From assembly GCA_905370255.1 (NCBI GenBank), contig CAJPKC010000003.1:25805-89804 (forward strand): 64,000 bases of DNA, written 5' to 3'. Origin of the DNA: Streptococcus oralis (GTDB lineage: Bacteria; Bacillota; Bacilli; Lactobacillales; Streptococcaceae). Shown piece after piece: positions 2,508-63,710 of this stretch. The notes beneath the pieces were generated by a model. The model saw only the letters and a list, made by a program, of their open reading frames with translations, was not told the DNA's origin and searched no databases. Every line of letters starts with the position of its first letter. Within the stretch, counting starts at the first letter, position 1. Position numbers and translations under genes: made by a program.

Positions 2508-2533
2508 AAGAACCACTCGTGAGAGTGGTTCTT
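2508..2533 (-). terminator. Terminator ending CRISPR-like RNA S1
   Basis: Stem AAGAACCACTC / GAGTGGTTCTT with loop GTGA, followed on the minus strand by TTTTCTTTTC. It lies about 30 nt after the repeat, so the S1 transcript would carry one guide-sized segment and then stop. Confidence 0.8.
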
Positions 2534-2680
2534 ATTAGATGAGTTCGATTGGTTGAATTGCGTTATTTCGATCCGCGCAGACAGCATTCCGCTGAATGCG
2601 ACGACTTAAAAGCTTAAGCCGTAAGTCTAACCTACGTCGCACTCGGTTGCCTTAAAAACGAATTTAGTTGCGACTTCGTT
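2534..2680 (-). CRISPR. Solo leader-repeat-guide locus S1
   Basis: The conserved leader (from 2680 down) starts ACGAAGTCGCAA and runs into a long-form type I-C-like repeat: GTCGCATTCAGCGGAATG, then CTGTCTGCGCGGATCGAAAT, ending at 2565. About 30 nt of locus-specific sequence follow (2564-2534), then the terminator. A TATAAAT-like -10 lies about 10 bp upstream of the leader, so the whole conserved block is probably transcribed. There is one repeat only and no cas gene. It could be a single-guide crRNA or a solitary-repeat anti-CRISPR RNA. Confidence 0.7.
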
Positions 2681-2710
2681 CTAATTTATAATATGAAACG
2701 CAGACGTGCG

Positions 2711-5879: not shown

Positions 5880-6057
5880 ACGGCAACCCAGGGAACCGAC
5901 GTTTAGCCAAACCTGTACCTATTCGTTCGACCGATTGGTTCATTTCAATCCGCGCAGACGACATTCCGCCGAATGCGACGACTTAAAAGCTTAAGTCGTA
6001 AGTCTAGCCTATGTCGCTTTCGGCTGCCTTAAAAACGATATTAAATGCGACGTCGTT
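5880..6057 (-). CRISPR. Solo leader-repeat-guide locus S2
   Basis: The leader starts ACGACGTCGCA at about 6057. The repeat ends GCGCGGATTGAAAT at 5942, and a guide-sized segment runs 5941-5907. An imperfect hairpin (GGTTCCC...GGGCACC) then leads to TTTTTTTGAC near 5860, which should end the transcript. The leader change ACGAC/ATCGT replaces ACGAA/TTCGT of other loci, keeping the first stem. Confidence 0.7.
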
Positions 6058-6126
6058 CTAAGTTATAACGCGAAACGCAGACGTGCGTTTCAAAGAGAAG
6101 ATGCTTCGAAAAAGAAAGTCGCAAAA

Positions 6127-27854: not shown

Positions 27855-27857
27855 AGT

Positions 27858-28762: not shown

Positions 28763-28810
28763 TATACTTATAATTGTTAGGCTAATATGAACTGTCAGAA
28801 TATAATTATA

Positions 28811-28960
28811 AACGACGTCGCAATTAATATCGTTTTAAGGCAGCCGAAAGCGACATAGGCTAGACTTACGGCTTAAGTTTTTAAGTCGTCGCATTCGGCG
28901 GAATGCCGTCTGCGCGGATCGAAATAGCAAAATTTCTGGGAAAAGTCCTAACAAAATTGA
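28811..28960 (+). CRISPR. Solo leader-repeat-guide locus S3
   Basis: The leader begins AACGACGTCGCAATTAATAT at 28811. The repeat GTCGCATTCGGCGGAATG then CCGTCTGCGCGGATCGAAAT ends at 28925, with a guide-sized segment at 28926-28960. A GCC-TTGTAA-GGC hairpin and T run near 28988-29015 may end the RNA. This locus and the one at 48616 lie on the plus strand; the other four are on the minus strand. The guide overlaps, antisense, the end of the small gene at 28948-29064. Confidence 0.7.
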
Positions 28961-29064
28961 GCTAAACTGTATTGTTTTGATGTGTTGCCTTGTAAGGCTA
29001 TGTTTTTATAATGCAGTTTTGCTTTTTTTTTATTTTTGATAATTAAGAGTTCTTCAAAGTTCAT
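28948..29064 (-). CDS. Small basic protein (38 aa)
   Basis: MNFEELLIIKNKKKAKLHYK and onward, ending SLAQFC. Its ATG overlaps the TGA of the preceding gene (ATGA) and GAAAGG lies nine bases upstream, so translation is coupled. Unknown role; its 3' end is antisense to the S3 guide. Confidence 0.5.
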   Translation of the reverse strand: MNFEELLIIKNKKKAKLHYKNIALQGNTSKQYSLAQFC

Positions 29065-29366: not shown

Positions 29367-29385
29367 GAGGTTCCTTTCTTTAAAG

Positions 29386-29979: not shown

Positions 29980-30001
29980 GTGTTAGAGTCCTTTCTTTGA
30001 A

Positions 30002-31167: not shown

Positions 31168-31179
31168 TTTAGTTCCTTT

Positions 31180-32168: not shown

Positions 32169-32170
32169 GT

Positions 32171-32767: not shown

Positions 32768-32779
32768 GCAGACTCCTTT

Positions 32780-33244
32780 CTAGTAGATATTGTGTTCTTT
32801 AAGGATTTCGGTCAGTCGTCGATGGTCGATGGTGCCGTAGTTTGTGATAGCATTGTTGATGATTGGTGAAATGATTTCAGATTTGTTGATGTTTTTGAGT
32901 TTATGATATTCAGCTAAAATGACTTTGATTGTAACAGGTCGTAATTCGATTGTCCATAAGGGGTTGCGACATAGAAACAATTGAGCTCTATTCATTGTTT
33001 TCTCGATTGGACTTGGTTCTTTTGTTAATCCGTCGAGTTTGAGTTGTAAAATTGACATATATTGGTCATATGCTTTTTGTTGTTGTGCTTCTTCCGACGT
33101 AAATACTATTTGAAACGGTGCTTCTAGAAAGCCTTTGAGCGCACTTAGTTGAGGATTTGCAATTTGGCCTAATCGTTTATATAAATATTTCCATGTTTTG
33201 CGCGACATGTTGTTTGTTTTAGGTTTTGTTTCGATGATTTTCAT
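32780..33244 (-). CDS. KTMSP-family short member
   Basis: 154 residues. Motif IEKTMNRAQLFLCRNPLWT. Close to 33256-33690: both have a LxxxLEAPFQ/LDAPYK block and TKEP(S/A)PIEKTM. Confidence 0.65.
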   Translation of the reverse strand: MKIIETKPKTNNMSRKTWKYLYKRLGQIANPQLSALKGFLEAPFQIVFTSEEAQQQKAYDQYMSILQLKLDGLTKEPSPIEKTMNRAQLFLCRNPLWTIELRPVTIKVILAEYHKLKNINKSEIISPIINNAITNYGTIDHRRLTEILKEHNIY

Positions 33245-33255
33245 GTGAGTTCCTT

Positions 33256-33690
33256 TTATTGATATAATTTATTCAATTTTAGGTAATTTACATTCCCATT
33301 AAAATCGATGATTTTATCAAACATATTGGTGATTTGGTTCTCGGTTCCATAGTTTTTGAGCCACGGGACGGCTGCGATGATTTCAATGATGTCCTTTGGT
33401 CTCATATTGTTTGTCCATAATGGATTGTTTGTTAAGTATAATTGCGAGCGGGTCATTGTTTTTTCGATTGGTGCTGGTTCTTTGGTGAGAGTTTCCAGTT
33501 TTAGTTGTAATGCCTTGATATAATCGTAATGATACTGTTCGCTGTCAGCTTGTGTGAACACCTTCTTATATGGTGCGTCTAGAAATTGTTTCAATGTATC
33601 TGTGTTTGGATTTTTTTCCGTTATTAGCGAATCATATAGAGCATTCCATTCTTGCGATGTCAATTTGTTATAATTGGTGATTGTTGACAT
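33256..33690 (-). CDS. KTMSP-family short member
   Basis: 144 residues. Motif IEKTMTRSQLYLTNNPLWT. Tandem paralogue of the preceding gene. Confidence 0.65.
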   Translation of the reverse strand: MSTITNYNKLTSQEWNALYDSLITEKNPNTDTLKQFLDAPYKKVFTQADSEQYHYDYIKALQLKLETLTKEPAPIEKTMTRSQLYLTNNPLWTNNMRPKDIIEIIAAVPWLKNYGTENQITNMFDKIIDFNGNVNYLKLNKLYQ

Positions 33691-33702
33691 TTACTTTCCT
33701 TT

Positions 33703-34224
33703 CTATTGTGGTGGTAAAATCGGTGGCACGTTAACGGTACCTTTTTTACGTGGTTTGTCGGGAATGACCATGTGGTGCGACATGACCATGGATGGATACG
33801 CACTATGTGTATGAATATTTCCGACGAGACCTGCATTTGTGGAAATGTTTTGCAATATAATATTTGGAATAACATAGTTTTCCATAAAATTGATAACGGA
33901 CGCACCTGTTGGCAGTTCAAATGTATTTGCAAAGTAATAGCTCAATTGCTCAATGCTGTATTCCGCACACCACAACGGACAGTTAGCTTCATATAACTGT
34001 GCCGGCGTCATTGTTTTTTCAATTGTAGTTGGAACGTGTGTTATGGCGCGATATTTAAGATCTAACGCTTGTAATTCATCTTTAGTACCAATAGGCGCCT
34101 TGTGAAAGTTCACAAGGCGCTTTAGATCGGCTATATCAGGATGCGTCTGCGACTTGATTTCTTCGAAGAGATTAATCGCTTGCGGAATAGTGAGGTGATT
34201 TTTGAAGAATTTACTCAGAATCAT
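33703..34224 (-). CDS. KTMSP-family member next to the MoxR gene
   Basis: 173 residues from ATG at 34224, which directly follows the MoxR stop (TGA-A-ATG). Motif IEKTMTPAQLYEANCPLWC. It has a His- and Pro-rich tail absent from the others (HTHSAYPSMVMSHHMVIP). Confidence 0.65.
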   Translation of the reverse strand: MILSKFFKNHLTIPQAINLFEEIKSQTHPDIADLKRLVNFHKAPIGTKDELQALDLKYRAITHVPTTIEKTMTPAQLYEANCPLWCAEYSIEQLSYYFANTFELPTGASVINFMENYVIPNIILQNISTNAGLVGNIHTHSAYPSMVMSHHMVIPDKPRKKGTVNVPPILPPQ

Positions 34225-38479: not shown

Positions 38480-41400
38480 ATGAAATCTAAAAAGATATCT
38501 ATTTTGATGCTCGGTTTACTTGTCGCACCGATGCTTCTTCAGAGTGTCTCGTCAGCGAAAGCTGATGACGAACCCGCAATCGTACACACTCAAAAGAGCA
38601 CTGTGTCGAGTCTCGTAGAAGAAGGTCACTATTTCGGTCCGACACCGGCACGTAATAAGTCGTCTAAGAACATTTTGGATGACCTCCCTAAAGACAATCC
38701 GTTTAAGTACGTCCACGGTGACGGAACCGATCTTCGTCAAATGGCACCGGATGCGTACGGGCGCGCGGCAACTGTACAGTTGTATATGCGACACGCGAAC
38801 GGTCAATATACAGTAGGCACGGGAGCGTTCGTCGGTAACCGTACGATTTTGACAGTTGCTCATAATTTCTTGAAAGCAAATCTTGATAATACAACTAACG
38901 ACATTACTGACGTGTGGTTTGTTGTTGGTTCAAATTCTGCCTATAAATTTGAAGGACCCGCTAATAATTACAGACTCCTTCCGACAAGCGGAACAATGTA
39001 TCATGTCGATAAAAGTCAGTTACGATTCTTCAATCAACAAAATTATTCAAGTAATATTTCAGATCGTAACGATAAAGCTTTATGGGAAAATGATGTGGCC
39101 GCGATTCAGATTAAGGATCCTTTCCCGATTCTGGCTAAGAAGCAAGGGCTTAAAAACGATGAAGTGCTTCGTATTGCACCACTCGATGAACTCTTGCAAT
39201 TTAATCGCTCGCCAGTAAATACGCGGAACGTGGTGATTAATGGATATCCTGGCAATTATAAGCCCGGGACGAAAGAAGCCGGAACTCTCAAAAATGCTAT
39301 TATTGGTGGATTCCAGTATCGTGCTGCTTCCGTGATTGCTAATAAGCCACGGTACATTTCTACGGGCGCGGATCTCGATTCAGGGTCACTTTTTGAGTTT
39401 AAAAATACAGCTGTCGGTGGTATGAGTGGTTCATCAGTTCTCGATGAAAAAGGAAATGTTGTGGGAACTTATAATTTTTCAACACCTGGATCAACGCCAG
39501 ATGGACTCGCCGGCGGTGTTCTTTTCTCTAAAGCGCATCATACATGGCTTACAAATCTTGTAAAAGAAAATACGGCTACTGGTTGGTATGACTTGGATGG
39601 TACGCGTTACTATCTTGGAGAAGACGGTAATATTGTTAAGAATAAGACGCTCGTGATTGATGGTCATATTTGGAACTTTGATGGAGAAGGTCGTCCAACT
39701 GATCAGGGTGAATACTTTGAAACAAAAGTCTTTGTAAAACGTGTTGATGAAAATGGTAAAGAAATTGAAGCTCGTCAGGAAGTTGGTAAAGCAACGGCTT
39801 TGAAAGATTTCGAATATAGTGGTGCTACTGAATATGTCAAACGTGATGCTGCTTTTAAAGATGCTTGGTTGTTGAAGAGCGTGAACGGTTCGACTGAGAA
39901 TAAAGCTACGATTAAAGCTGAAAAAGGAAAATCTGAAGTTGAAATTGTTGAAGTGTATCAATCACGATGGAGTCCATTGCGTCGTACGTCTCTGACGAAA
40001 GCGATTGAAGAAGTTAAAGCTCATGCGAAAGATCGTGAATCGAAACTTCCGATTAAAGGTTTTGAGGCTTATGCTCCAGCTGAATTGGCTGGTAAGTTGA
40101 ATACGGCTCAAAACAATTATAACAAGGCTCTTACGGATGCTGAGAATCTAGCAAAAGCGACTGATAAAGATGATCAGACTGCGAAACGTACTCAAAAAGT
40201 AATTGATGGTGCGGAAAAAGCTCTTCGTGATAGTGATAAAGCATTTGAGCCACTTTTGGCAGAATACGCTAAGGCGAAACGTGATGAACGTATTTCAGCA
40301 GTAGCTGTATTGGATGTCGCGGCTCAGTATTTGGAAGATCATAAGTCTGAAAGTACGAAATCTGTGAAACCTGAAACGCTAAAACAATATGATAACGCTA
40401 AAGACGCTCTTCAAAAAGCGATTACAGCGCAGACTCAATTTTTAGCGTCTAATAAATCGAATGATTTGTTTAAAACGCTCGATTTGAAGAATGGATCTGA
40501 TGCAATTACGAAAGCACAAGCTGATTTAGAAGCGGCTGTTGCAAAAGTGACTAGTGAGAGTGGCATGTTAGACACATCTACTTTAACGAAGTCGATTGCT
40601 GATTTGGATATGAAACTCGATTGGACTTTTGATGGAGCCTTTACGGCTGATTCATTAAAAGGATTTGATGTAGTGAAGCAAGCGGCAACGGATCGTGTGA
40701 AAGAAGCGCGTGAATTGCTTTCGACGGGGTTGACTAAGAATGATCAAGCTAAGGTCGACGATATGTTGAAGAAAATCGCTCAAGCGAAAGATGATTACTT
40801 GAAAGCAATCGATAAGTTTGTTCCAAGTGAGCACAATCGAGTTGAGGATCCGAAAAACCCATCAGGCTCTACAGAACCTCGTAAAGTCGTTCCAGCTGTT
40901 GTTGTAAAAGAAAAAGTAGTTGGACCTGTGAAGCCGACTGTGCCTGAGAAGCCAGTTGAGACGAAACCTTCTGAGCCTGTAACTCCTGCAAAACCAGTTG
41001 AAACGAAACCGTCTGAACCTGTGACGCCTGCGAAACCAGTTGAGACGAAACCTTCTGAGCCTGTAACTCCTGCAAAACCAGTTGAAACGAAACCGTCTGA
41101 GCCTGTAACTCCGACGAAACCAGTTGAGACGAAACCGTCTGAACCTGTGACTCCGACGAAACCAGTTGAAACGAAACCGTCTGAGCCTGTAACTCCGACG
41201 AAACCAGTTGAAACGAAACCGTCTGAGCCTGTAACTCCGACGAAACCAGTTGAGACGAAACCGTCTGAACCTGTGACTCCGACGAAACCAGTTGAAACGA
41301 AGCCTTCTGCGCCTGTAGAGACTAAACCTTCGACTCCGGTTACGACAGAGGAGCCTACAGTGCCTGATAATCCGGTCATCCCTACAGTTCCGACTAAGCC

Positions 41401-47509: not shown

Positions 47510-48586
47510 ATGGAAACGACTCAGATTTATACACCGGAAGCTCTTGCGAAGTTGCTCAAAGAAATAGATTTGAAAGACCTCGCACTGCAAACCGATATTA
47601 AATATGGAACGCTCAAGAATTATGCGTATGGTCAGTCTAATATAGACAAGATGCCGATTTGGATGGCGCAACGGATTATGGAAGCTCGTAATCGAGTAGA
47701 CTTCTTCAATCGAATCGGAAATATTAGTGTGCCGGAAAACGTCTTTCAAATCTTGAAAGAAAAACTTGGTATCACTCATCGTACGACTTATGATGAATAC
47801 GTGTCGGCACAGTTGTTGTTCGATAATTATCAGACGTTCTTATATCCGTCGGATGAGCCCTATTATTTCTTCTTGCGTTTGCATGAGTTGTCGAAAATCA
47901 ATGTAGACTTGACGCTATTCAGTTTGAGCCCTGCGAAAAACATTCGTTTTGTTTTTGTGGATGACCGTAAGAATTTTCAAGACTATAGCTTCGGTCAAGA
48001 ACAGATGTCTTTTGAGGACTTTAAGAAATTGACAGATCCGTTTTCTTTTAGATCGCAGTCTATGTATAAGGTCATCGGAACTGAAATCGGACGTCGTGTT
48101 TCTTACTACAAAGAAGGTGGCTGGTTACGTGACGGTGTAGAACTTTCGAATTATCGAAGTTGTGATTTTTCTTATATGCGTCCGTTCGATTTAGAAAATG
48201 GTTGTCGGACAGTCGTGACAGAAAACACGTATTCGATGTTTATTGAGTATAAACTTCATCAATTCTTAGATCAAGGTGTCTTGAGCGATGCGTTAGACGT
48301 AACAACCGGCGCTGCGATTTTGCGAGAATGCTTGAAAGACTATAGTGTTTTCGATTTAATGCCTCTCTTCATGCTCGACAAAGAAAAAGTGAACGAATTC
48401 ATTCGGGAACGTGTTAATGAAAAACACTTGGATGATGATTCTCAAAAAGATGCTCTCTTGAGTTTAGCTTTTAGCGCATGGGATGTGTTTTACGACGATT
48501 GTGAGAAACACTTAGCTTGGTTCAAGGGTGCGCGCGATGGTGAATATTGGAAAGACGTTGAGCCCGTTGGTCGAGAAGTGATCTAA
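47510..48586 (+). CDS. Unknown protein with HTH-like N-terminus, partial match to a CRISPR-like spacer
   Basis: 358 residues from ATG 47510. Residues ~8-45 (YTPEALAKLLKEIDLKDLAL, TLKNYAYGQSNIDKMP) look like a helix-turn-helix of the XRE style; the rest is unassigned. Near the 3' end, the sequence following TTC at about 48523 aligns with spacer 2 of the array at 48616, with 15 identical consecutive bases (TGGTGAATATTGGAA) and codon-level differences elsewhere. This suggests the spacer came from an allele of this gene on a related element. Confidence 0.65.
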   Translation: METTQIYTPEALAKLLKEIDLKDLALQTDIKYGTLKNYAYGQSNIDKMPIWMAQRIMEARNRVDFFNRIGNISVPENVFQILKEKLGITHRTTYDEYVSAQLLFDNYQTFLYPSDEPYYFFLRLHELSKINVDLTLFSLSPAKNIRFVFVDDRKNFQDYSFGQEQMSFEDFKKLTDPFSFRSQSMYKVIGTEIGRRVSYYKEGGWLRDGVELSNYRSCDFSYMRPFDLENGCRTVVTENTYSMFIEYKLHQFLDQGVLSDALDVTTGAAILRECLKDYSVFDLMPLFMLDKEKVNEFIRERVNEKHLDDDSQKDALLSLAFSAWDVFYDDCEKHLAWFKGARDGEYWKDVEPVGREVI

Positions 48587-48615
48587 AAAAAATAACTAAC
48601 CAAATCAAATATATA

Positions 48616-48890
48616 AACGAAGTCGCAATTAAATTCGTTTTTAAGGCAGCCGAGGGCGACGTAGGCTAGACTTACGGCTTAAGCTTTTAAGTCGTCGCAT
48701 TCGGCGGAATGCCGTCTGCGCGGATCGAAATAGTAATGAAGAAGAAACAATGGTTAGTTATCGTGCGTGATACGCACGTGGATTGAAATAGCGGTGAGCG
48801 TGCTGGTGAATATTGGAACAAACATCTAGCATTATCGCACTCTAACGAGTGCGTGGATCGAAATATGATCAAACGAGCGATCAACAACAT
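48616..48890 (+). CRISPR. Three-repeat mini-CRISPR array S4 with conserved leader
   Basis: The leader begins AACGAAGTCGCAATTAAATT. Repeat 1 is the long form, ending GCGCGGATCGAAAT at 48731. Repeat 2 (48760-48789) has stem GTGCGT/ACGCAC and ends GTGGATTGAAAT. Repeat 3 (48834-48864) has stem CGCACTC/GAGTGCG and ends GTGGATCGAAAT. Spacers: 48732-48759, 48790-48833 and a last one from 48865. The array runs straight into the RBS of the helicase gene with no terminator, so they may be co-transcribed. Spacer 2 resembles the gene just upstream, with a TTC PAM. Confidence 0.8.
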
Positions 48891-48905
48891 GGAAAGGCGG
48901 TGTCA

Positions 48906-50105
48906 ATGGCACTAACTCTCAGAAAATGGCAACAACAGGCTGTGAATCGCAGTCTGTTGAACTTGCCTGGAATATTCTTAGAAGCGGCTGGTGGTCGAGG
49001 TAAGACCCTTTGTGCGCTTGAGATTGCGCGTGCGAGAAACGCTCAATCTATCTTAATAGTTAATAAAAAGTTGTCTATTTTAGATGGCTGGAAAGAATCT
49101 TTGCAACATTATTCATTTCCGAATGTGACGTGCATCACGGATAAGACACTCAAAAATCGTCTCGCAAAAGGTGAAAAGTTCAACGTTGATATCTTCATTA
49201 TCGATGAATGGCAAGATATGTGTTCGGATAAGAATTTAGCAGCCTATAAACGCGTTAAACGCAATTATACGATTGGCTTATCCGCAACTCCTATTCGTCG
49301 AAAAGGAACGAATTTCTTCGGACTTGAGCAGACAGTCTTCGGACAAGCAAATCCTTCGAGTAAATGGGAATGGATGACGTATTGGGGGCGAATGATTGCG
49401 GATCAGTGGACGCAGACGGGTCTTAAGTGGCTAGACTTTCGCGATTACGATAGCTATATCGCTCAACTGCCCAACTTTATGAGTTATGAAGAGATCGAAG
49501 CCATAGAAAACGCTGTCGAGAACAACGGACACGAGCTTCGATTCCATAGAGTCTTGTTAGAAGGTGCGAATCCAGAATTGATACGAATTTTTAACAAGTA
49601 TAATCTTGTCCGTGTAAATGGACAGTCAGCTATGGCGAGACAAAGCTTCGGGCGAAACAGCTTCATGCGGTACTTACGACAAACCGGTGTCGAGGTTGAG
49701 TTCCCGAAACTTCGCGCCGTGAATAGAGACACACCGACACTCTTGTACGTGGATAAGATGATTAATACAGCTCCCGGCGGTCTTTTAATCGTTACGAAGT
49801 CGGTTCAGATAGCGGAAATCATTAAAGAGCGCAACCCACACATTGCGTTTTGGAGTGGCGACCGTCGCGATGACTCAGGAGAGCGCATAATGGTTGCGAC
49901 ACAGCAAGTGATGGGTGTTGGTGTAGACGGATTACAATCACGATTCAACGCGATATTGGTGCTTGACCCGGTTCTCCCATCGAGCGGTGAGTACAACGAT
50001 TACAGACAGCTCCTGTGGCGCGTGACAGGGTCACGCCAACAACATGATGTGGTGGTCATTGAAACCTATTTCGAAGGAGATGTGCCTAGCGATGAAGCGG
50101 TTTAA
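48906..50105 (+). CDS. SF2 DEAD/DEAH-like helicase
   Basis: 399 residues from ATG 48906 (GGAAAGGCGGTGTCA upstream). Walker A AAGGRGKT (~22-29), a DExH-type box IIDEW (~96-100), motif III GLSATP (~125) and a C-terminal RecA domain with VGVDGLQ and RVTGSRQ. Compact, with no extra domain. It resembles small phage helicases that unwind recombination or replication intermediates. The leader doubles as the mini-CRISPR array. Confidence 0.8.
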   Translation: MALTLRKWQQQAVNRSLLNLPGIFLEAAGGRGKTLCALEIARARNAQSILIVNKKLSILDGWKESLQHYSFPNVTCITDKTLKNRLAKGEKFNVDIFIIDEWQDMCSDKNLAAYKRVKRNYTIGLSATPIRRKGTNFFGLEQTVFGQANPSSKWEWMTYWGRMIADQWTQTGLKWLDFRDYDSYIAQLPNFMSYEEIEAIENAVENNGHELRFHRVLLEGANPELIRIFNKYNLVRVNGQSAMARQSFGRNSFMRYLRQTGVEVEFPKLRAVNRDTPTLLYVDKMINTAPGGLLIVTKSVQIAEIIKERNPHIAFWSGDRRDDSGERIMVATQQVMGVGVDGLQSRFNAILVLDPVLPSSGEYNDYRQLLWRVTGSRQQHDVVVIETYFEGDVPSDEAV

Positions 50106-50349: not shown

Positions 50350-50368
50350 ATATGCTCTTTTTAACGTT

Positions 50369-52042
50369 TTAACGTTTCGCGCGAGTGGTTCGACGCACGA
50401 ATCCGCGAGTAGTTTTCGGGCGCGAGAAGGCGCGCTGTAGTTTCCGACCATTGCCCTTATAGCATGGGTCGTAGAAGTCGACTAGTTGGTATTCAGTTAT
50501 AAGCGGTTCGTCCGCGTCCATGCGCGCGCCGACTTTGATGATGTCTTTTTGCGTGAGGCGGGCGTCCCACTCATTCGTTTCGGCTAAGTAGTCTGTTGCA
50601 TATTCAATAAAGGCTGACTTCTTGACAGGTTTTCCGTTAGCGTTATCTTTAGACATCCACGAAACGTATAAATCGTATAAGAATTTAGTTGGAAGTACGT
50701 CCCATTTGAATCGTGGTAAAAACTCGTCGAAGAATTCGAAAACAGAGTTATTCTCAACCTTTGTTCGATAAAGTGCTTCTTCGTTTTCTTTCGTTATAAG
50801 GAATTCGGTGACGACGGGTGCTTCAAGTGCTCGTTTGAGAATATATTCTTTAACGTCTGTTCGATCCATGTAGTCTCGTTTGATGTATGGTCGCTCACAG
50901 CCAGTAAACGTATGTGTGAAAGGCACAATGAGGAGACGGCGATAAATTGAGTTGGACTTGTCTCGTGTGAGTAACGTTCCGTTCATCATCTGAATGTTCA
51001 ACATACGCACTTGCATAGGATAAGCATCTTTACCTTTTGCTTCGATTTGGATGTCGTCGCCAGTGATTGCTGCTTTGAATTCATCAGTGCCGTCGATGTA
51101 GGCCCCGACAGGATTCTCATCTGCGATGTTGAGGATTTTCCCTAGTAATTGTTGTGTACGAAATCGTACGCCGAAGTTCTTAATATTGACAGATGAATAA
51201 AGACCGTCTCCAATGATGTTTTTAAGAACTTGTCCGAGAGTTCCTTTCCCGTTGTTACCTTGTCGTGAATAGAAAATAACGCATTTATTGTAGACACGAC
51301 CGGGGTTCAATGCAGCTGTGATGATTTGCCACATTTGCTCTAGACGATCTGGATTGTGATCGACGAGTTCGTCTAACCATGAATCGAACGTCCAGTCTAC
51401 GCCGTCAGGCATAGTGATTGTTGGATTAATTGCGTTTGGGTTGTAGTTAGTTTGGATTTTCGCAAGACGGTATTCATGTTGGTTAAACGGTTCTAGTTGT
51501 TTTGTTTCTTTATTGTAGATACCGTTCTTAACAAAGATTCTATTAACGTCTGATGTTTCGTGGACTTCTGAAATCGTCTGAATCATTGTGTTAAAAACGC
51601 GACGGTGGAAATAGAAGTCTTCGTTTGGTACAGCGTTGTAAATGATGTCAATTAATAATTTGTTTGCGGGTACATATAGACCGTGTGTTCGTGATGTTTC
51701 GTCGAAATCGTAAATATATACGATTGGTTCTTTTACGTTCGTCGGTTCGCTGTGTTTCGATGCTGGTGTAATCAATGCGAGTGGGATAATATGTAATAAT
51801 AAAATCGCATATTCGCCAACAGAGATTTTAACATTTTTCGGTTCACGCCCCCCACTTTCGACTAGTGCTTCAGAATATAATTCTTGATAATATTCTGTTG
51901 TGATGTCGCGGACGTGGTTGCGCATATCGCGAATTGTTTTAAGAGTTACGCCGGTGCGAACTGACATGAAGTCGTTAGCTTTGATGATTTTAGAGTCTGT
52001 TTTTGTCATAGATTCCGAATTAGATAAATTTGTTATAAACAT
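50369..52042 (-). CDS. Primase-helicase 3 (D5/P4-type SF3 replication protein)
   Basis: 557 residues from ATG 52042. Walker A SRQGNNGKGTLGQ (~262), ILNIADENP (~308), GDDIQIEAKGKDAYPMQV and IYRRLLIVPFTH are nearly identical to primase 1. The last codons, after GGA TTC, read GTG CGT CGA ACC ACT CGC (VRRTTR) and continue AKR-stop; from ACC onward they are identical to the guide of locus S5, which instead begins GTC AAA CGG (VKR). Own origin lies upstream at 52200-52740. This is the third replication module of the window. Confidence 0.87.
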   Translation of the reverse strand: MFITNLSNSESMTKTDSKIIKANDFMSVRTGVTLKTIRDMRNHVRDITTEYYQELYSEALVESGGREPKNVKISVGEYAILLLHIIPLALITPASKHSEPTNVKEPIVYIYDFDETSRTHGLYVPANKLLIDIIYNAVPNEDFYFHRRVFNTMIQTISEVHETSDVNRIFVKNGIYNKETKQLEPFNQHEYRLAKIQTNYNPNAINPTITMPDGVDWTFDSWLDELVDHNPDRLEQMWQIITAALNPGRVYNKCVIFYSRQGNNGKGTLGQVLKNIIGDGLYSSVNIKNFGVRFRTQQLLGKILNIADENPVGAYIDGTDEFKAAITGDDIQIEAKGKDAYPMQVRMLNIQMMNGTLLTRDKSNSIYRRLLIVPFTHTFTGCERPYIKRDYMDRTDVKEYILKRALEAPVVTEFLITKENEEALYRTKVENNSVFEFFDEFLPRFKWDVLPTKFLYDLYVSWMSKDNANGKPVKKSAFIEYATDYLAETNEWDARLTQKDIIKVGARMDADEPLITEYQLVDFYDPCYKGNGRKLQRAFSRPKTTRGFVRRTTRAKR

Positions 52043-52083
52043 GATACGTTTCCAATCTTTTGAAATAATTTTTTGCAAAAGAG

Positions 52084-52174
52084 TTGACACGTATGCGTCT
52101 TTATGGTATACTTATTTTTAGCAATAAATAAAACACGTGTCATACGCAATCCGGCAAGATTGCGTTTTTTTTTT
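52084..52174 (+). ncRNA. Candidate countertranscribed RNA upstream of primase 3
   Basis: Promoter TTGACA (52084-52089), 17 bp, TATACT (52107-52112). Terminator CGCAATC/GATTGCG (52145-52164) plus a long T run. The ~50-nt RNA would be antisense to the primase 3 leader, matching the unit at 12186-12275. Confidence 0.7.
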
Positions 52175-52842: not shown

Positions 52843-53238
52843 ATGTCTAAAGTGACAAAGAAAAAACCAAACGAATTTATGAAAAAGTTGAATCAATTCT
52901 CGAATAAGATGTTCGAAAAATCAACGGGCTTGACGGCTCCGAATACGTCAGAATATGAAGATGAACCGTATAGTTATAACTCATCAGCACCGTCTTCTGT
53001 TTATATTCAACAACCGTCTGGCACACAATATGTAAGGCAATCTGTGTTGTTCACGAATGCGTTTCGCGCCGGCTTCTTTTTTACATTAGGTTGTATGGTG
53101 GCAGGAATTATTCCGTTTATCATTGTCTATATGATGTTGATGGGATCTTTACAGCAACAAACGCCAAGATATGTACAACAAACACCTTCGATTGATCAAG
53201 TCGTTCCTGATCAAAATCAGGATGCACCTCAACAGTAA
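52843..53238 (+). CDS. Single-span membrane protein
   Basis: 131 residues. Charged, Ser/Tyr-rich N-terminal ~65 residues, one membrane segment (AGFFFTLGCMVAGIIPFIIV, ~76-100), Gln/Pro-rich C-terminal tail (QQQTPRYVQQTPSIDQV). It has its own promoter and terminator. Unknown role. Confidence 0.6.
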   Translation: MSKVTKKKPNEFMKKLNQFSNKMFEKSTGLTAPNTSEYEDEPYSYNSSAPSSVYIQQPSGTQYVRQSVLFTNAFRAGFFFTLGCMVAGIIPFIIVYMMLMGSLQQQTPRYVQQTPSIDQVVPDQNQDAPQQ

Positions 53239-53244
53239 AAAAAT

Positions 53245-53275
53245 AAGAAGCACTCAATTGAGTGCTTCTTTTGTG
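53245..53275. terminator. Bidirectional terminator shared with CRISPR-like RNA S5
   Basis: AAGAAGCACTC-AATT-GAGTGCTTCTT. It ends the 52843 gene on the plus strand and the S5 transcript on the minus strand. Confidence 0.8.
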
Positions 53276-53281
53276 TGTTTT

Positions 53282-53431
53282 TGTTTTAACGTTTCGCGCG
53301 AGTGGTCCGTTTGACATTTCAATCCGCGCAGACAACATTCCGCTGAATGCAACGACTTAAAAACTTAAGCCGTAAGTCTAGCCTACGTCGCACTCGGTTG
53401 CCTTAAAAACGAATTTAATTGCGACTTCGTT
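53282..53431 (-). CRISPR. Solo leader-repeat-guide locus S5, guide matches primase 3
   Basis: The leader starts ACGAAGTCGCAATTAAATTC at 53431. The repeat ends GTCTGCGCGGATTGAAAT at 53316; within it GTTGCATT and AATGTTGT differ from other loci. The guide (53315 down to about 53282) carries 24 bases (53283-53306) identical to 50366-50389 at the 3' end of primase 3. Its 5' part differs from that gene but keeps the reading frame (VKR for VRR). The terminator follows at once. Confidence 0.78.
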
Positions 53432-53478
53432 TTCGTTTTTTTATGTGTGTTCTAATATTTCGTCATCGAATACTTCTT

Positions 53479-55734: not shown

Positions 55735-58164
55735 TTAAAGTTGTTTTCCACAATCTTTTTCAAAATCACGGAAAATGTCGATGATGTGTGTTTCAAAAAT
55801 ATAAGCATTGTCTTTATCACGCAACCAGTTCAAGAATCGAACTTGTACAGCCGTAAAGGCTTTGTTCAATTTGATAGCGGTACTTGTGCGGAGACTTTTG
55901 ATTGCGTTTTCATGCAAACCACGTAAGCGTTTGACTTCACGATAGTAGGCGTATTTGACTTTGAACATGAAGCCGTTTTGGTCAGTCAGAACGAGACCTT
56001 CAGAGTCGCGATCGTAATCATGTTCTTTGATGTAACGCATAAGTGTTGGGATATCATCAAAGGTTGTAATCACTTCTTTACGTTTGAAGAAGGGTGTCGT
56101 GATTTCTAATTGTTCGAGTACATTGTTTGAAAACGCAGAATCAATATCGATACCGTCAAATTCGAAACTATTTGGAATAGCATCGAGAATTGTTAACGAG
56201 TTTTTATCGAAATCGATGATGTGTCGGTCGTCAATGTGTTCTACTTCAAAAGTGAACGAACAGTCATATTTTTCAGAAAGGTCTTTCAATTGATCTTTTT
56301 CGTTTTGAGTCAATTGTTCGAAGATTTCTCGGAAGTAGTCAACATATTCGCCTTCTGTAGTTGATTTAGTTGCGAGTACAAATTCACCATTAATTGTAGA
56401 TGCAATTCCCAAGAAACCATTATATTTCTTGTGGGCGATAAGTGGGAATTTAACGGATTTTTTCAGGTTGGAAATTTGAGTTTCGTCCTGTTCACCAATT
56501 GCGAAGAATTTGTTGTAACTACGCATTTTGATTTGACCTGATGTTTGATCAACGAAAAGACCACGTGCTTTAATGGTTTCTGTATCCCAGATGCCTTTCT
56601 CGAAAGCTCGCGATGTGAAGTTCAAACTGTATAGGTTATGATCTAATGATTTAACACGAATGTGTTTATTGCGAATCATTGAGTTCGTCGTTTGATTTTC
56701 AGTGTCTTCAATCCATGGTTTTGCAGTGGCGTCTGATTCGGTATCTGTTTGAGGGATACGGAAAACAGTGTTTGCATATTTTTGGACAGAGTGTCCATTT
56801 TCAGTGATGTGTAGGACGCAGAGATTCCCACCGTATTCAACGTTATCTTCTAAACAAATTGAATGTTCAGTCGAGTCTGTGTGGCGATGACCATGCACTT
56901 GGATGAATCCTTGAGTGTTTCCTTTTTGGAATGATTCTTCCCAGATTTCATCGATTTGCGTTTCATATTTCCCAACGCCTCGAATCAATTGGAAGCTCGG
57001 AATAAAGGTCATTTTTGGAAGCGCTGAAATACCGGCGTGGTTGATGAAATACTTCCGTCCATGGAATTCGAGAGCGACTGCGTCACGGAAACGTCGAATA
57101 AGGTCACGTATTTGCTTTTTGAGTTTGAATTCGTCAACCGTGAATGTTGAATAATTCGTGTCGTGACGAACTTGATAGGGGTCAATTAGGTGAACTGTTC
57201 CGTCACGGAAAGTCATTCGAGGTTTTTCTACTAATTTGTCTTTATACCAAAAGACAGGAATGTCTGTAATCTGACCGTTTACGGTATAGTACAGGTTTGT
57301 ATCGTCAATATCGTCGTTAATGTCTAGTCCTATCTCGTAGTGGTCGTAATCTTTTTGACCGAGCAATTGCGGACGAGTTTTATAATTGAAGACGTGTGGT
57401 AATTTGATTGGATCGCCGTTTTCATCGAGGGCGTCAAAAGCCCAGTTTTCAAGGTGAACGTCATGGTTACCACGGATAAAGATAACATTTGGATCTTTTG
57501 CGTGATCGAAAGCCCATTGTAGAACTTTGTCATTTTCGATACCACGGTCAAGCAAATCACCTGCGAAGATATAGAGCGTTTCTGGATTGAAGTCTGACAG
57601 AGCTTCTGTTAGTACTGTATAGCAACCTTGAACGTCGCCGATTACTTTGATGTCTTTATATTTGTTGGCATCCATTGTGTAGAAATTGTCGATTTCGGAT
57701 AAGTCGTTGATTTCTGTTGCGAAGTTTGGAACGTCGTTTGTTTGAAGTAATGCGTGTTTTTGACGAATATCTTCTTCAGGGACACGCTTGTGTTCAGGTC
57801 GTGTTTGATTTCGTTTGAGTAATTCATCAAGCGAGCAATCAATTGTTTTGTAATAGACGCGATAACGATAGAGCTCAATAAGCTTTTTATAATTTTGCAT
57901 GGATGTTTTTGTTGTGTGCGTTGCGTCGATAATGGTGAAGTCACCGCGACGCATACGATGTTCAAGCGCTTTATAAAGCATATCCCATGCAAGTCGGTCG
58001 CTGTTTTGCGTGATTCGATATTCACCGTCTGTTGTCATGACGGGGTTTGAGATGAGTTGTCGGAAGCGATCCGCTTCAAGCGTGTATCCTTCGAGGTTGT
58101 TTTCTCGAATCCATGTTGATTTTCCAGAGCCGGGTGCTCCACGGAGTAATAGTAATGTGCGCAT
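55735..58164 (-). CDS. Three-domain RNA repair enzyme: polynucleotide kinase, phosphatase and RNA ligase
   Basis: 809 residues. (1) Kinase: P-loop RGAPGSGKSTW (~7-17). (2) Calcineurin-like phosphatase: VIGDVQGCY (~175), FAGDLLDRG (~202), IRGNHDVH (~233), NHAGISAL and VHGHRHT. (3) Nucleotidyltransferase ligase: HKKYNGFLG with the probable adenylated Lys ~577, TFEVEH, EGLVL (~722) and FKVKYAYYREVK (~735). The order kinase-phosphatase-ligase is that of bacterial Pnkp, but the ligase looks closer to T4 Rnl1. No Hen1 neighbour is seen. It would heal and seal cut tRNA or other RNA, countering host anticodon nucleases. Confidence 0.88.
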   Translation of the reverse strand: MRTLLLLRGAPGSGKSTWIRENNLEGYTLEADRFRQLISNPVMTTDGEYRITQNSDRLAWDMLYKALEHRMRRGDFTIIDATHTTKTSMQNYKKLIELYRYRVYYKTIDCSLDELLKRNQTRPEHKRVPEEDIRQKHALLQTNDVPNFATEINDLSEIDNFYTMDANKYKDIKVIGDVQGCYTVLTEALSDFNPETLYIFAGDLLDRGIENDKVLQWAFDHAKDPNVIFIRGNHDVHLENWAFDALDENGDPIKLPHVFNYKTRPQLLGQKDYDHYEIGLDINDDIDDTNLYYTVNGQITDIPVFWYKDKLVEKPRMTFRDGTVHLIDPYQVRHDTNYSTFTVDEFKLKKQIRDLIRRFRDAVALEFHGRKYFINHAGISALPKMTFIPSFQLIRGVGKYETQIDEIWEESFQKGNTQGFIQVHGHRHTDSTEHSICLEDNVEYGGNLCVLHITENGHSVQKYANTVFRIPQTDTESDATAKPWIEDTENQTTNSMIRNKHIRVKSLDHNLYSLNFTSRAFEKGIWDTETIKARGLFVDQTSGQIKMRSYNKFFAIGEQDETQISNLKKSVKFPLIAHKKYNGFLGIASTINGEFVLATKSTTEGEYVDYFREIFEQLTQNEKDQLKDLSEKYDCSFTFEVEHIDDRHIIDFDKNSLTILDAIPNSFEFDGIDIDSAFSNNVLEQLEITTPFFKRKEVITTFDDIPTLMRYIKEHDYDRDSEGLVLTDQNGFMFKVKYAYYREVKRLRGLHENAIKSLRTSTAIKLNKAFTAVQVRFLNWLRDKDNAYIFETHIIDIFRDFEKDCGKQL

Positions 58165-58318: not shown

Positions 58319-60010
58319 TTAGAGCTCGAACTCGTCATCGATCTCATGAGCGGGTTTTTGTGTGAATTTCGTTTTCGATTTCGTGGGCGATTTTTTGACA
58401 CGATTCTCTTCAAAGAGCGCATTGAAGATGTCTTGTCCGTCCTTCGATAACGAACCGATTTTGACCATACCGTCGAATGTGTCTTGATCGAAGTAGAGCA
58501 CGGTGTCTAGTGAGACAGTCAGTGCAGAATTGCCTGACGGATCTTTCTCATCCGTACTTTGCGAGCAAGGCATTGCGACGAGTTGACCATTATTTTCCAG
58601 GACAAGAATCGGTTGAATGTGACCGTCTTGTTCTTTTTTAATAGGGTTTTCTTTCGATATATCCTCTCTGTTTGGTACGTATGCCATAATAATGTCAAAT
58701 TGCTTCGGCACCGTATTTTCCACTTGAGATTCGTGCTGATGTTCTATCACGGGTTCCTCGACAGAAACTTCTTTATAGAAATTCTTAGAAAAGTCACTAT
58801 TCAGCATTTCTTTAAAGGACTCGATCTTGACTTCGGCGTATTTCTTGCAAGGAGCGTCTGATGCGAGGATTCGCGATTTCAACTCGTCAAGATCCTGAAG
58901 AAGTCCCGCCATGTTGATTTCAAACGGTTCAAATCCATGTTGGTTGAGAAATTCGATGGCTTCTGTACGCTTCAAACCACTGACGATAGAATTATCGGAG
59001 CTGTTTAGAAAAGAGCTGAAGTCATCAATATCATCTTGCAAGTATTCGCCGACGATGTATCTCTCTTCCATGGTTTCGTTCCAGAGCATTGGAAGTGTTC
59101 GCCCAAAGTCTAGGTTGACGAGGCGACTTTTCTGTGTTTCGGTGTCATATGCGAATACGAAGTTCGACGGATTGTTCAGTCGGTCTTGATTTCCTACAAG
59201 CATGTCGAAAGCGGCTTGTTGTACGAGGAAGCCCCGAGTTGTTTCGCCATCGATGTTCGTATTGAGGAATGCTTTTTGGAGGTTCGCAATCCGTTTTTCG
59301 GTGTTGACATCGTACATGTTCTCGGCATAGTCCGCGACAGTCATGGTCGTATGCTTGTCAATCTTACGGTCAACGGCTAAGACGTGTTCTTCTTCGTTTT
59401 CGCGTAAGAAGTTCTTAGAAATTGTTCCTGTCACTTTTTTGCCGTCGAGTTCGAACTCACGCCACTCATAAAGAACATTATTCAGTTGGTTCGCGTTCGT
59501 GATATTCTTCAGAAGCGCTGATGTAATCGCTTCCGAAACGGACGAGTATTGAGCATTAAAGTCATTCTTCCACGTGCCGTTAACGTCAGGCGATAAATCG
59601 TCTAGCTTAACGAAGTATGCTTCACCGTCTATCTGGATATTGTCCTTATGCTGAAGACCGTTGATATTTGTATTACCGAAGGTGTCAGGCAAGATGATCG
59701 TATCCGTGTTTTTCGGTGACGATGATTCTTTAATGGCTTTCTCACTGTGGTTAATTGCAAGATTTTGTTGCATAGGTGCATGGAATCCATTCTCTTGGAT
59801 ATCTTGCAATAGTTCCGCAAGTGATTGATTGGTTTGTTGGAATTCATTCAGACGTTTCTCGATTCCTTTGTAGTTGCGCTCGTCAGGTGTCAGGATTACG
59901 TGAGAGGCTAACTCATCGGGACTTGCAAGTAAACGTGCAGTTTGATTCTTGTGGTTGATCTCGAAGGTGAGGACTTCTTGACCGGATATATTAAAGCGTA
60001 ACGTTTCCAT
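58319..60010 (-). CDS. HipA/CtkA-like kinase with C-terminal extension
   Basis: 563 residues from METLRFNISG (ATG 60010, AAAAAGGAAATCGAAAAT upstream). Residues ~265-300 show the HipA-type catalytic loop FDMLVGNQDRLNNPSNFVF and the metal site LVNLDFGRTLP. An N-terminal ~130-residue region is unassigned. A C-terminal part (IQPILVLENNGQLVAMPCSQ) faintly recalls PemK/MazF-like barrels, which is only a suggestion. There is no HipB-like partner, so it is not a simple toxin-antitoxin pair. The nine-repeat CRISPR-like array lies directly upstream with no terminator between. Confidence 0.7.
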   Translation of the reverse strand: METLRFNISGQEVLTFEINHKNQTARLLASPDELASHVILTPDERNYKGIEKRLNEFQQTNQSLAELLQDIQENGFHAPMQQNLAINHSEKAIKESSSPKNTDTIILPDTFGNTNINGLQHKDNIQIDGEAYFVKLDDLSPDVNGTWKNDFNAQYSSVSEAITSALLKNITNANQLNNVLYEWREFELDGKKVTGTISKNFLRENEEEHVLAVDRKIDKHTTMTVADYAENMYDVNTEKRIANLQKAFLNTNIDGETTRGFLVQQAAFDMLVGNQDRLNNPSNFVFAYDTETQKSRLVNLDFGRTLPMLWNETMEERYIVGEYLQDDIDDFSSFLNSSDNSIVSGLKRTEAIEFLNQHGFEPFEINMAGLLQDLDELKSRILASDAPCKKYAEVKIESFKEMLNSDFSKNFYKEVSVEEPVIEHQHESQVENTVPKQFDIIMAYVPNREDISKENPIKKEQDGHIQPILVLENNGQLVAMPCSQSTDEKDPSGNSALTVSLDTVLYFDQDTFDGMVKIGSLSKDGQDIFNALFEENRVKKSPTKSKTKFTQKPAHEIDDEFEL

Positions 60011-60054
60011 ATTTTCGATTTCCTTTTTCTTTTTTGTTGTTTGTTCTTTGCGAT

Positions 60055-60717
60055 ATTTCGATCCGCGCACCTTCGGAGAGGTGAGAGGTGCGATGTACTA
60101 ACATGTAACATCATAGATGCTTGTGTTTGGCGATTTCGATCCGCGCACGTTTTTAGGCGTGCGATCGCAACCATAATCGCTTTAATAGCTTTTTTCTGAT
60201 TTCGATCCGCGCTCCTGTGATAGGAGCGTGAACATCCGATTAGACAGGTTATTCTTTTATTATTTTGATCCGCGCACGTTTGATGACGTGCGATATGCTT
60301 GTATTGTTGCATCATCTAATGCTTTTGACATTTCAACCCACACACCTGTAGAGGTGCGACTTTGTTGGGCAATATATATCTAGACGATTATAATATTTCG
60401 ATCCGCGCAAACGGCGTTCTGCCGAATGCGATGTTAGTCAATTGTAACAGTAAGAGCTATTAGAGAATTTCAATCCACGCACCCGTGAAGAGTGCGATAT
60501 AATGTTACCGCGTAATTAGTCAGACGACCCCATTTCAATCCGCGCACGTTCTGTGATGTGCGATAGCTAATAAATGGATGATGCGCTATGTGTTATTTAG
60601 ATCCGCGCAGACAGCATTTCGCTGAATGCGACGACTTAAAAGCTTAAGTCGTAAGTCTAGCCTACGTCGCTCTCGGCTGCCTTAAAAACGATTATAATTG
60701 CGACTTCGTTTATAATT
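60055..60717 (-). CRISPR. Cas-less type I-C-like CRISPR array, nine diverged repeats
   Basis: Read on the minus strand from the conserved leader (60717-60640) there are nine repeats, whose handles end at 60595, 60532, 60467, 60395, 60330, 60262, 60199, 60133 and 60055. Spacing is 63, 65, 72, 65, 68, 63, 66 and 78. Nearly all end in G(C/T)G-GATYGAAAT or close variants. The stems differ but pair: CGCTCCT/AGGAGCG, CGCACGT/ACGTGCG, CGCACCT/AGGTGTG, CGCACTC/GGGTGCG. Two repeats are the long form. The repeat at 60467 (GCACTCTTCACGGGTGCGTG, then GATTGAAAT) is close to common I-C repeats. No cas genes in the window. Confidence 0.85.
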
Positions 60718-62339: not shown

Positions 62340-62531
62340 AAAACATAATAAACTATATATTTTATGAACCTTTCAAATAAATTTTAAAAGATTTCCTGCT
62401 TCATCCCGTTCGATTTTGTTAAAAACGTTAATACTTGAGACTCAAATATCTTCGTTTAAAACTACTTTCGTTTATGTAACGATCCACAGGCTTAACGTCC
62501 CGTGTAGCCCACGGTAGTGACTTGTGTTTTG
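62340..62531 (-). ncRNA. Probable omega-RNA / right-end RNA of the tnpB element
   Basis: On the minus strand, directly after the tnpB stop, the sequence has CTACCGTGGGCTACACGGGACG (hairpin) and GGGATGAAGCAGGAA, the conserved scaffold-like end of TnpB guide RNAs. The guide would be read from the flank beyond about 62335. Confidence 0.6.
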
Positions 62532-63710
62532 TTAAACTGTTGTCAAGACAGTGTAATCGACGCATTTCTCTAAATTGATCGCCGCGTTTTCGTCACGATT
62601 ATGAACAACGTGACAGTCAGGACATTCCCAACTACGGTCTTTCAATTTAAGATTTACGTTTTTATATCCACAATTAGAACATAGTTTACTTGATGGATAG
62701 AAACGCGGTGTTAAACGCAATTCGATTCCCAATTTTTCACATTGTTGTTGTAGAAAAACGCGAGACATATACCATTGCGCTTGAGAAATTGCCTTTGATA
62801 GATGTTTATTTTTCATCAAACCTTTTACATTTAGGTCTTCAATCACGATAAAACTTGGTTTTCGTTTTAAAATAGATTTAAGAGCTTTTCGATTGTAATC
62901 AGTTCGAATCCGAGATAAACGTTCATAAAGTTTATTTACGATTAATTGTTGTTTTCGAAGATTTTTACATTCATGCAAAGGACGTATCCATTCAAATGAT
63001 TTTAACTGTCCTTTTTTAGCACCACTTTTGTAATAAACCTTGTTTGTCATGTTACTTTCATAACGACGTGACAAAGAACGTTGTTCTCTACGCAACTTCT
63101 TTTCAAGCTTACGAACTTTTTTAGATTTATTGATCGACCGAATGGTTTGATCTTTTGTGATAAATTGATCTTTTAAACCAAAGTCAATTCCGATTCCTTC
63201 ACCAGACGTGGCGATACGTTCGTCGGTTTCGGTTTTAGATAAACATGAAATATAATAACGTCCGTTTTTAACGGAAACGGTTACAGATGAAATATCTTTT
63301 GGAATATAACCAAATTCTTTTAAACGCACCCACTTCAACGTTGGTAGAAAAATGCGATGTCTTTCAACTTTGATTCCTTGTGTTAGATAAAAACTGTTAT
63401 ATTTCGATTTTTTCTTAAATTTAGGTTTTCCTTTGTCGCCTTTTAAATAAGCCCAAACCGCATCGTTTGCGTTCATAATAGCTTGTTTTAAGGCTTTACT
63501 CGAAACTGTTTTTAACCAACTAGGAATTGTCGGATCATGATTAATCATTTTAGAATAATCATAGCCTGAGATAATTGATTCATTTTTATCTAAACGTTTA
63601 AAATTGAAAGCAATATATTGGTTATAAATATAACGAACATTACCGCACGTTTGATGAATTAGTTTAATTTGATCTTTTGTCGGATAAATTTCCGTTTTGT
63701 AGGCTTTCAT
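62532..63710 (-). CDS. tnpB: TnpB RNA-guided nuclease
   Basis: 392 residues, full length. RuvC carboxylates: Asp in GIGIDFGLKD (~175), Glu in IVIEDLNVKG (~290) and Asp in HNRDENAAIN (~370), with the zinc ribbon CSNCGYKN and CPDCHVVH. All key residues are present, so it is probably active. TnpB uses an RNA from its own 3' end to cut DNA next to a TAM. RBS AAAAAGGATATCGGTTCAG. Confidence 0.9.
   Translation of the reverse strand: MKAYKTEIYPTKDQIKLIHQTCGNVRYIYNQYIAFNFKRLDKNESIISGYDYSKMINHDPTIPSWLKTVSSKALKQAIMNANDAVWAYLKGDKGKPKFKKKSKYNSFYLTQGIKVERHRIFLPTLKWVRLKEFGYIPKDISSVTVSVKNGRYYISCLSKTETDERIATSGEGIGIDFGLKDQFITKDQTIRSINKSKKVRKLEKKLRREQRSLSRRYESNMTNKVYYKSGAKKGQLKSFEWIRPLHECKNLRKQQLIVNKLYERLSRIRTDYNRKALKSILKRKPSFIVIEDLNVKGLMKNKHLSKAISQAQWYMSRVFLQQQCEKLGIELRLTPRFYPSSKLCSNCGYKNVNLKLKDRSWECPDCHVVHNRDENAAINLEKCVDYTVLTTV

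What the first reader, a model, noticed from the sequence alone, without database searches (positions are those of the whole stretch)
53282..53431. Guide of locus S5 matches the 3' end of primase 3, with TTC PAM and seed mismatches
Seen: 53283-53306 is identical over 24 bases to 50366-50389 (minus-strand ACCACTCGCGCGAAACGTTA and flank). Aligned from the first guide base, the gene reads GTG CGT CGA where the guide reads GTC AAA CGG, synonymous or conservative codons. The gene bases just 5' of the alignment are TTC. Known: TTC is the type I-C PAM. Inference: the guide was made against a primase allele of a related replicon. Mismatches at positions 3-6 and 9 protect the element itself.
Basis: partly seen in the sequence, partly recalled or inferred. 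Interest (0 to 1): 0.95.

Follow-up and report, generated by a model that had tools for sequence, protein, structure and literature searches.

The report
Self-sparing guide against sister elements
A stretch of 34 bases beside a CRISPR-type repeat, on what is probably a mobile DNA element, matches the end of the element's own predicted replication gene next to the tag that type I-C CRISPR machinery needs but differs in the critical first bases, so it is likely a guide that would turn a host's CRISPR machinery on sister elements while sparing its carrier.

Summary
On the minus strand, 53315-53282 follows a type I-C-like repeat and matches the 3' end of primase 3 at 27 of its first 32 positions. 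Positions 10-33 are identical, TTC lies directly 5' of the matching site, and mismatches fall at 3-6 and 9. None of 4,000 shuffled spacers did as well. Homology stops at the repeat boundary and after guide position 33, so a leftover primase end is unlikely.

A second spacer, S4.2, repeats the pattern more weakly: 25 of 32 near the 3' end of the gene beside its array, again after TTC, mismatched at 2 and 3. The DNA of those sisters could not be reached.

S5 is one of six copies of a conserved module; it has one repeat and, instead of a second, a terminator-like hairpin. I read it as a guide gene, likely using host type I-C Cas proteins to exclude sister elements: a new variant of the known virus-borne mini-CRISPR arrays. 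Transcription, processing, interference and the host are not shown.

The parts
53282..53315 (-). S5 guide, 34 nt read from 53315 down; would encode VKRTTRAKR-stop in frame with the primase
53316..53353 (-). S5 repeat, 38 nt, hairpin plus the type I-C-like 3' end CGGATTGAAAT
53354..53432 (-). Conserved 5' module (leader-like) upstream of the repeat, shared by six loci
53238..53270 (-). Terminator-like hairpin (11-pair stem, then ATTTTTTT) 11 bases after the guide; no second repeat
50365..50398 (-). Own matching site at the 3' end of primase 3; mismatches to the guide at 3-6, 9 and 34
50399..50401 (-). TTC (Phe codon) at the PAM position of the own site
50369..52090 (-). Predicted primase 3 (DUF5906, Pox_D5)
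48790..48834 (+). S4.2 spacer, the second spacer with a TTC-flanked match in a neighbouring gene
48524..48555 (+). Own matching site of S4.2 (25 of 32, TTC at 48521-48523; mismatches 2, 3, 8, 12, 14, 30, 31) near the 3' end of the gene 47510-48586
48601..48864 (+). S4: module and three-repeat array
60055..60714 (-). S6: module and nine-repeat array with diverged repeats and spacers of about 31-40 nt
2531..2695 (-). S1: module, one repeat, guide-like stretch of about 31-34 nt, then a hairpin with a T run (read by eye)
5900..6060 (-). S2: module, one repeat, guide-like stretch, then a hairpin with a T run (read by eye)
28800..28964 (+). S3: module, one repeat, guide-like stretch

Best explanation
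S5 is likely a one-guide crRNA gene on a probable mobile element, aimed at the 3' end of the predicted primase of sister elements, whose allele its guide would match better than the resident one. Shown: a conserved 5' module, a type I-C-like repeat, a 34-nt stretch and a terminator-like hairpin lie in that order on the minus strand; the stretch matches the resident primase end beside a TTC and differs from it at positions 3-6 and 9; primases with the peptide it encodes exist elsewhere. Inferred: the transcript is cut at the repeat hairpin by a host type I-C Cas5 and loaded into Cascade. It would then bind sister elements with TTC-GTCAAACGG..., recruit Cas3 and remove them, so that the resident is not displaced. 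Inferred: the resident escapes through its seed mismatches. How the guide was acquired (host Cas1-Cas2, or recombination) is open.
For: Match far above chance: 27 of 32, 0 of 4,000 shuffles. Likeness limited to guide positions 1-33. TTC exactly at the PAM position; TTC is the I-C PAM and +2/+3 changes are escapes in PMC7913775. The five mismatches in positions 1-33 all fall in positions 1-9 (5.3e-4 if placed at random). S4.2 repeats the pattern in another gene: 25 of 32 (5 of 4,000 shuffles reach that, so about 2% for one of 16 spacers; 0 with TTC), mismatches at 2 and 3. Primases with the guide-encoded tail after Phe: 12 of the 120 listed. That tail differs between otherwise nearly identical primases: 13 changes on the best tree of 36, of which well-supported branches alone force 4, 5 and 3 for the three classes. 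The K/R column is tied first of 42 informative columns for repeated change and the T/S column tied third. Repeats look like structured RNA: in nine short repeats 61 of 63 stem pairs form, 52 on average when arms are exchanged, 1 of 20,000 exchanges as high (arms taken by hand). Terminator-like hairpin on the right strand. Type I-C effectors exist in possible hosts: Csd1 over cut-off in 27 of 284 Streptococcus genomes; 23 of 284 carry the I-C-type repeat pattern, 20 of them three or more times. Virus mini-arrays that target relatives near the array, with mutated own sites, are known (PMC6858448).
Against: No sister DNA was reached, so no perfect protospacer was seen; peptide identity does not fix the codons, and Phe could be TTT. 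No second repeat follows the guide, so maturation of the 3' end is unclear. The host is unknown, and no cas gene was recognised in the 30 window proteins scanned with Pfam (of 107 ORFs listed), a TnpB-type gene apart. The module is not a Streptococcus leader: absent from 284 genomes but for one 31-nt hit at E 0.009. Of 16 stretches that follow repeats only two match the window above chance; three others searched in phages gave background hits (best E 0.4 to 2). For S4.2 the encoded peptide is no closer to its gene than shuffled peptides are (29 against a maximum of 38), and none of its 17 relatives has it exactly. The tail residues are easily exchanged ones, another column (Y/F) flips as often as K/R, and the tail classes are slightly clustered on the tree (5 of 200 shuffles as low).
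Confidence: 0.66

Rival explanations
1. 53282-53315 is the leftover 3' end of a second primase copy whose body was replaced by the module; the likeness is ancestry, not targeting.
For: The stretch is in frame with the primase end including its stop codon, and both are followed by terminators of the same family.
Against: Likeness starts exactly at the repeat and ends after guide position 33. The same terminator family also occurs at 1840, 2501 and 47260, so it is no sign of shared descent. TTC sits at the PAM position. S4.2, which lies between two repeats, shows the same pattern in another gene.
Confidence: 0.15
2. S5 and the other solitary copies are RNA anti-CRISPRs (Racr): repeat mimics that tie up Cas proteins, with the downstream sequence irrelevant.
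For: Solitary repeats; 14 of 16 stretches after repeats have no match above chance in the window; RacrIC1 is a known type I-C case (PMC10651486, passages read).
Against: The sequence after the repeat in S5 and in S4.2 matches neighbouring genes at TTC; two loci are multi-spacer arrays with stem-keeping repeats.
Confidence: 0.12
3. S5 regulates its own element: Cascade guided by S5 binds the resident primase gene without cutting and holds replication down.
For: TTC and 24 matching bases in the resident gene; crRNA-guided repression is known for type IV systems (PMC11656645, passages read).
Against: Mismatches at 3, 4, 5 and 9 lie in and beside the positions of type I-C escape mutations (+2, +3); the site is the last codons of the gene, not a promoter.
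Confidence: 0.05

Closest known systems
Virus-borne mini-CRISPR arrays, SPV1 and SPV2 (PMC6858448; passages read)
   Same: Few-spacer arrays without cas genes, aimed at close relatives, targets near the array, own sites altered by point mutations or deletions. The same paper says that phage mini-arrays without leaders also target adjacent genes of related viruses.
   Different: There spacers lie between repeats, and leaders and repeats resemble the host's; here one dedicated module recurs six times, repeats diverge with stems kept, and solitary guides end in a terminator-like hairpin; the carrier is not a recognised virus and sister DNA was not seen
RNA anti-CRISPRs, Racr (PMC10651486; passages read)
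   Same: Solitary CRISPR-type repeats on mobile elements; a type I-C example exists
   Different: Racrs work without a targeting guide; here the sequence after the repeat matches a gene at a PAM
Plasmid type IV systems in inter-plasmid conflict (PMC11656645; passages read)
   Same: Guides on one replicon against rival replicons
   Different: Those bring their own Cas proteins; none recognised here in the 30 proteins scanned

Membership tests
Type I-C CRISPR guide | Repeat with a hairpin and a 3' end like TGGATTGAAAT | tested here: met
   S5 repeat ends CGGATTGAAAT; the Streptococcus I-C repeats listed end GCGTGGATTGAAAT; stems of nine short window repeats 61 of 63 pairs
Type I-C CRISPR guide | Protospacer next to TTC | tested here: met
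   TTC at 50401-50399 and at 48521-48523 of the carrier's own, mismatched sites; I-C PAM in PMC7913775
Type I-C CRISPR guide | Processed by Cas5 and loaded in Cascade | not testable with these tools
   No RNA data, no genome held for the window
Virus-borne mini-CRISPR array | Spacer flanked by two repeats | tested here: not met
   S5 has one repeat, then a terminator-like hairpin; the S4 and S6 arrays do have flanked spacers
Virus-borne mini-CRISPR array | Leader and repeats like those of host arrays | tested here: inconclusive
   Module absent from 284 Streptococcus genomes but for one 31-nt hit, E 0.009; the eight full array leaders printed look unlike it (by eye); true host unknown
Virus-borne mini-CRISPR array | Spacer matches a related element, not the carrier | tested here: inconclusive
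   Carrier mismatched at 3-6 and 9; sister match seen at protein level only, 12 of 120 listed
Virus-borne mini-CRISPR array | No cas genes on the carrier | tested here: inconclusive
   None among 30 window proteins scanned with Pfam, a TnpB-type gene apart; only 64 kb of the element seen
Racr | Solitary repeat that inhibits Cas without guiding | tested here: inconclusive
   Repeat is solitary, but the following bases match a gene at a PAM; inhibition not testable

The most novel reading that the evidence does not exclude
The element carries hard-wired single-guide crRNA genes (module, repeat, guide, terminator) plus arrays whose repeats have diverged while keeping their stems. It uses borrowed type I-C machinery to police sister elements, and the primase tail is a recognition tag that lineages keep switching to escape each other's guides.
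Probability: 0.35. Interest if true: 0.82.

Novelty: new variant of a known kind. Interest (0 to 1): 0.66.

Why it matters
If true, large bacterial mobile elements fight their own relatives with host CRISPR machinery through guide genes too small to be noticed as arrays. The replication gene of the rival is the target, and the switching of its last codons would be a readable record of that conflict. It makes incompatibility between such elements directly testable.

Tried and rejected
Host array leader as origin of the module: not found in Streptococcus (leaders printed). Host spacers against this window: 156 between-repeat stretches from ten of the 12 loci L004-L015 (two hold one repeat; arrays are cut at the 3-kb locus ends and some spacers were clipped by the loose repeat pattern); best 26 of 35, not after TTC, none convincing. 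Phage targets for S3, S6.5 and S2: background hits only, best E 2, 0.4 and 0.7. S5 guide in phages and plasmids: best E 4 and 0.9; S4.2 in plasmids: best E 0.6. Not searched outside the window: 11 of the 16 stretches. Near relatives of the primase in named records: 31 plasmid and 486 phage records, all under 60% identity. Sister DNA: no relative confirmed in viral contigs (5 and 91 candidate stretches) or genome contigs (25 stretches); patterns for the module, the 38-nt repeat and the back-translated tail gave 0 in viral contigs. S5 module in plasmids: only short chance-level matches. Host by shared genes: the TnpB region and part of a surface-protein gene gave only short matches in 284 Streptococcus genomes, so the host stays unassigned. 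S4.2 peptide: not above shuffled peptides, no exact copy among 17 relatives. RNA folding of the module was not beyond shuffles (z -1.0 to -1.6). PADLOC on ten window proteins: only helicase-type matches for one, 48849-50105.

Full report
What was claimed and what is there. Every base-level statement holds. On the minus strand the guide starts at 53315 and its counterpart at 50398. Positions 10-33 are identical (24 bases). Positions 3, 4, 5, 6 and 9 differ, and position 34 differs. TTC lies at 50401-50399. In 4,000 dinucleotide-shuffled spacers none reached 27 of 32 anywhere in the window.

Anatomy. S5 is one of six copies of a conserved module: S1, S2, S5 and S6 read on the minus strand, S3 and S4 on the plus strand. 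Each has a conserved 5' part followed by a 38-nt repeat ending GCGCGGATYGAAAT (GCGCGGATCTAAAT in S6). S4 and S6 continue as arrays of three and nine repeats; S1, S2, S3 and S5 have one repeat. The nine short repeats of the arrays differ from one another but keep their stems: 61 of 63 stem pairs form, against 52 on average when 3' arms are exchanged among them, and 1 of 20,000 exchanges is as high (arms taken by hand from the stems). This is what an RNA hairpin under selection looks like, and it is unlike a fresh CRISPR array, where repeats are copies. In S5 the guide is followed 11 bases later by an 11-pair terminator-like hairpin with a T run on the same strand (the scan found 23 such hairpins in 14.2 kb, 13.7 expected from shuffles). 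So the unit reads module, repeat, guide, hairpin. Folding of the module itself is not better than shuffles.

Why a guide and not a leftover gene end. The ungapped likeness to the primase begins at the last base of the repeat, ends after guide position 33, and is absent on either side. That is the size of a type I-C spacer: the 32-nt Streptococcus I-C repeats listed recur about every 65-70 bases, which leaves spacers of about 33-38. TTC stands at the PAM position. A second spacer does the same: S4.2, at 48790 on the plus strand between two repeats, matches 25 of 32 bases in the gene just upstream of its array, again right after TTC, near that gene's 3' end. Five of 4,000 shuffled spacers reach 25, none of them with TTC; with 16 spacers looked at, a match of that size alone would turn up about once in fifty such sets. 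Its encoded peptide does not stand out from shuffled peptides and is not found exactly in the 17 relatives of that gene, so S4.2 is support of the second rank. In S4.2 the own site differs at 2 and 3 (and 8, 12, 14, 30, 31), in S5 at 3-6 and 9. In P. aeruginosa type I-C, TTC is the PAM and phage escape mutations fell at +2 and +3 (PMC7913775, passages read). In S5 all five mismatches within positions 1-33 lie in the first nine (chance 5.3e-4).

The sister primases. The search for primase 3 found 746 relatives, of which the best 120 are listed, the window's own protein among them (P0001, and P0002 with a later start). Among these 120, 14 end FVRRTTRAKR like the resident (P0001 and P0002 counted), 12 end FVKRTTRAKR, the peptide the guide encodes after a Phe codon, and 10 end FVKRSTRAKR; the other 84 have other ends. 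On a tree of these 36 (built without the last 12 residues, with two further relatives added) the tail class changes 13 times on the best tree; well-supported branches alone force 4, 5 and 3 changes for the three classes, and shuffled labels need 17.2 on average with 5 of 200 as low, so the classes are weakly clustered. With a block around each tested column left out of its tree, the K/R column that corresponds to guide positions 4-6 changes nine times, tied first with one other column among 42 informative columns (median four), and the T/S column eight times, tied third. This fits a contested site, but K/R and S/T exchange easily and recombination could do the same.

What could not be reached. 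No whole genome is held for the window. No relative of the primase was confirmed in viral contigs or genome contigs; patterns for the module, the 38-nt repeat and the guide-type tail found nothing in viral contigs. So the DNA of a sister element with a perfect protospacer was not seen. The host is unknown. A predicted surface protein has SSSPR51 repeats and an LPXTG anchor, which points to Gram-positive bacteria; SSSPR-51 is mentioned in a S. salivarius genome paper (PMC9610097, search listing only). As a plausibility test, 27 of 284 Streptococcus genomes carry Csd1 over the cut-off, and 23 of 284 carry the pattern GTCGC...GCGYGGATYGAAAT, 20 of them three or more times. The module itself is not in those genomes, apart from one 31-nt match at E 0.009. 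The element resembles the giant oral extrachromosomal elements named Inocles; that is recalled, and the paper is not held (its title was seen in a reference list).

Mechanism. Most likely the S5 transcript is cut at its repeat by the Cas5 of a host type I-C system and guides Cascade and Cas3 to sister elements with the guide-type primase end. The carrier is spared by its seed mismatches. Shown: anatomy, match, PAM, position of mismatches, existence of proteins with the encoded tail. Inferred: transcription, processing, loading, interference, exclusion. The missing second repeat is the weak point; type I-C Cas5 needs the upstream hairpin (recalled), and the terminator-like hairpin may stand in for the downstream one (inference).

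Comparison with the known. Virus-borne mini-CRISPR arrays of SPV1 and SPV2 target each other, near the arrays, with own sites altered by point mutations or deletions, and that paper notes phage mini-arrays that target adjacent genes of related viruses (PMC6858448, passages read). A 2024 review describes mini-arrays against related viruses and solitary repeats as RNA anti-CRISPRs (PMC11656645, passages read; PMC10651486, passages read). S5 works like a mini-array but fails one defining feature, a spacer between two repeats. I therefore call it a new variant. In the listings of the paper searches made I saw no report of such guide genes on a large bacterial non-viral element; most subscription papers are not in that library.

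Noticed in passing
62393-63710 (-): TnpB-like gene (62532-63710) with a RAGATH-18 RNA match directly at its 3' side (62393-62490, 65.7 bits): a likely omega RNA.
   Followed up: partly
48835-48910 (+) and 60000-60070 (-): The last repeats of arrays S4 and S6 lie just before the likely starts of a helicase gene and a 583-aa gene; the ORFs listed even begin with GTG inside the repeat (VRGSKY...). The arrays may form the 5' leaders of these mRNAs, so crRNA processing could cut them.
   Followed up: no
10167-10407, 13553-13793, 16955-17195, 25152-25392: Four copies of a 241-nt repeat, two of them just past the 3' ends of the two other primase genes.
   Followed up: no
19100-34035: Eleven copies of a 66-nt stretch (62-100% alike) in a region of many small minus-strand ORFs, probably a paralogous gene family.
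   Followed up: no
40864-41367: 42-nt tandem repeats inside a 1107-aa predicted secreted protein with a trypsin-like domain.
   Followed up: no
16239-16343: Tandem 21-nt repeats AAAATGTCTCCGTTTTCACCT.
   Followed up: no
55735-58164 (-): 809-aa protein with kinase-like AAA_33, calcineurin-like phosphoesterase and T4 RNA ligase domains: looks like an RNA end-healing and sealing enzyme.
   Followed up: no
L006, L010 and genome G157: Single type I-C-like repeats in Streptococcus genomes (one match each in G018, G038, G157), possible solitary repeat units.
   Followed up: no
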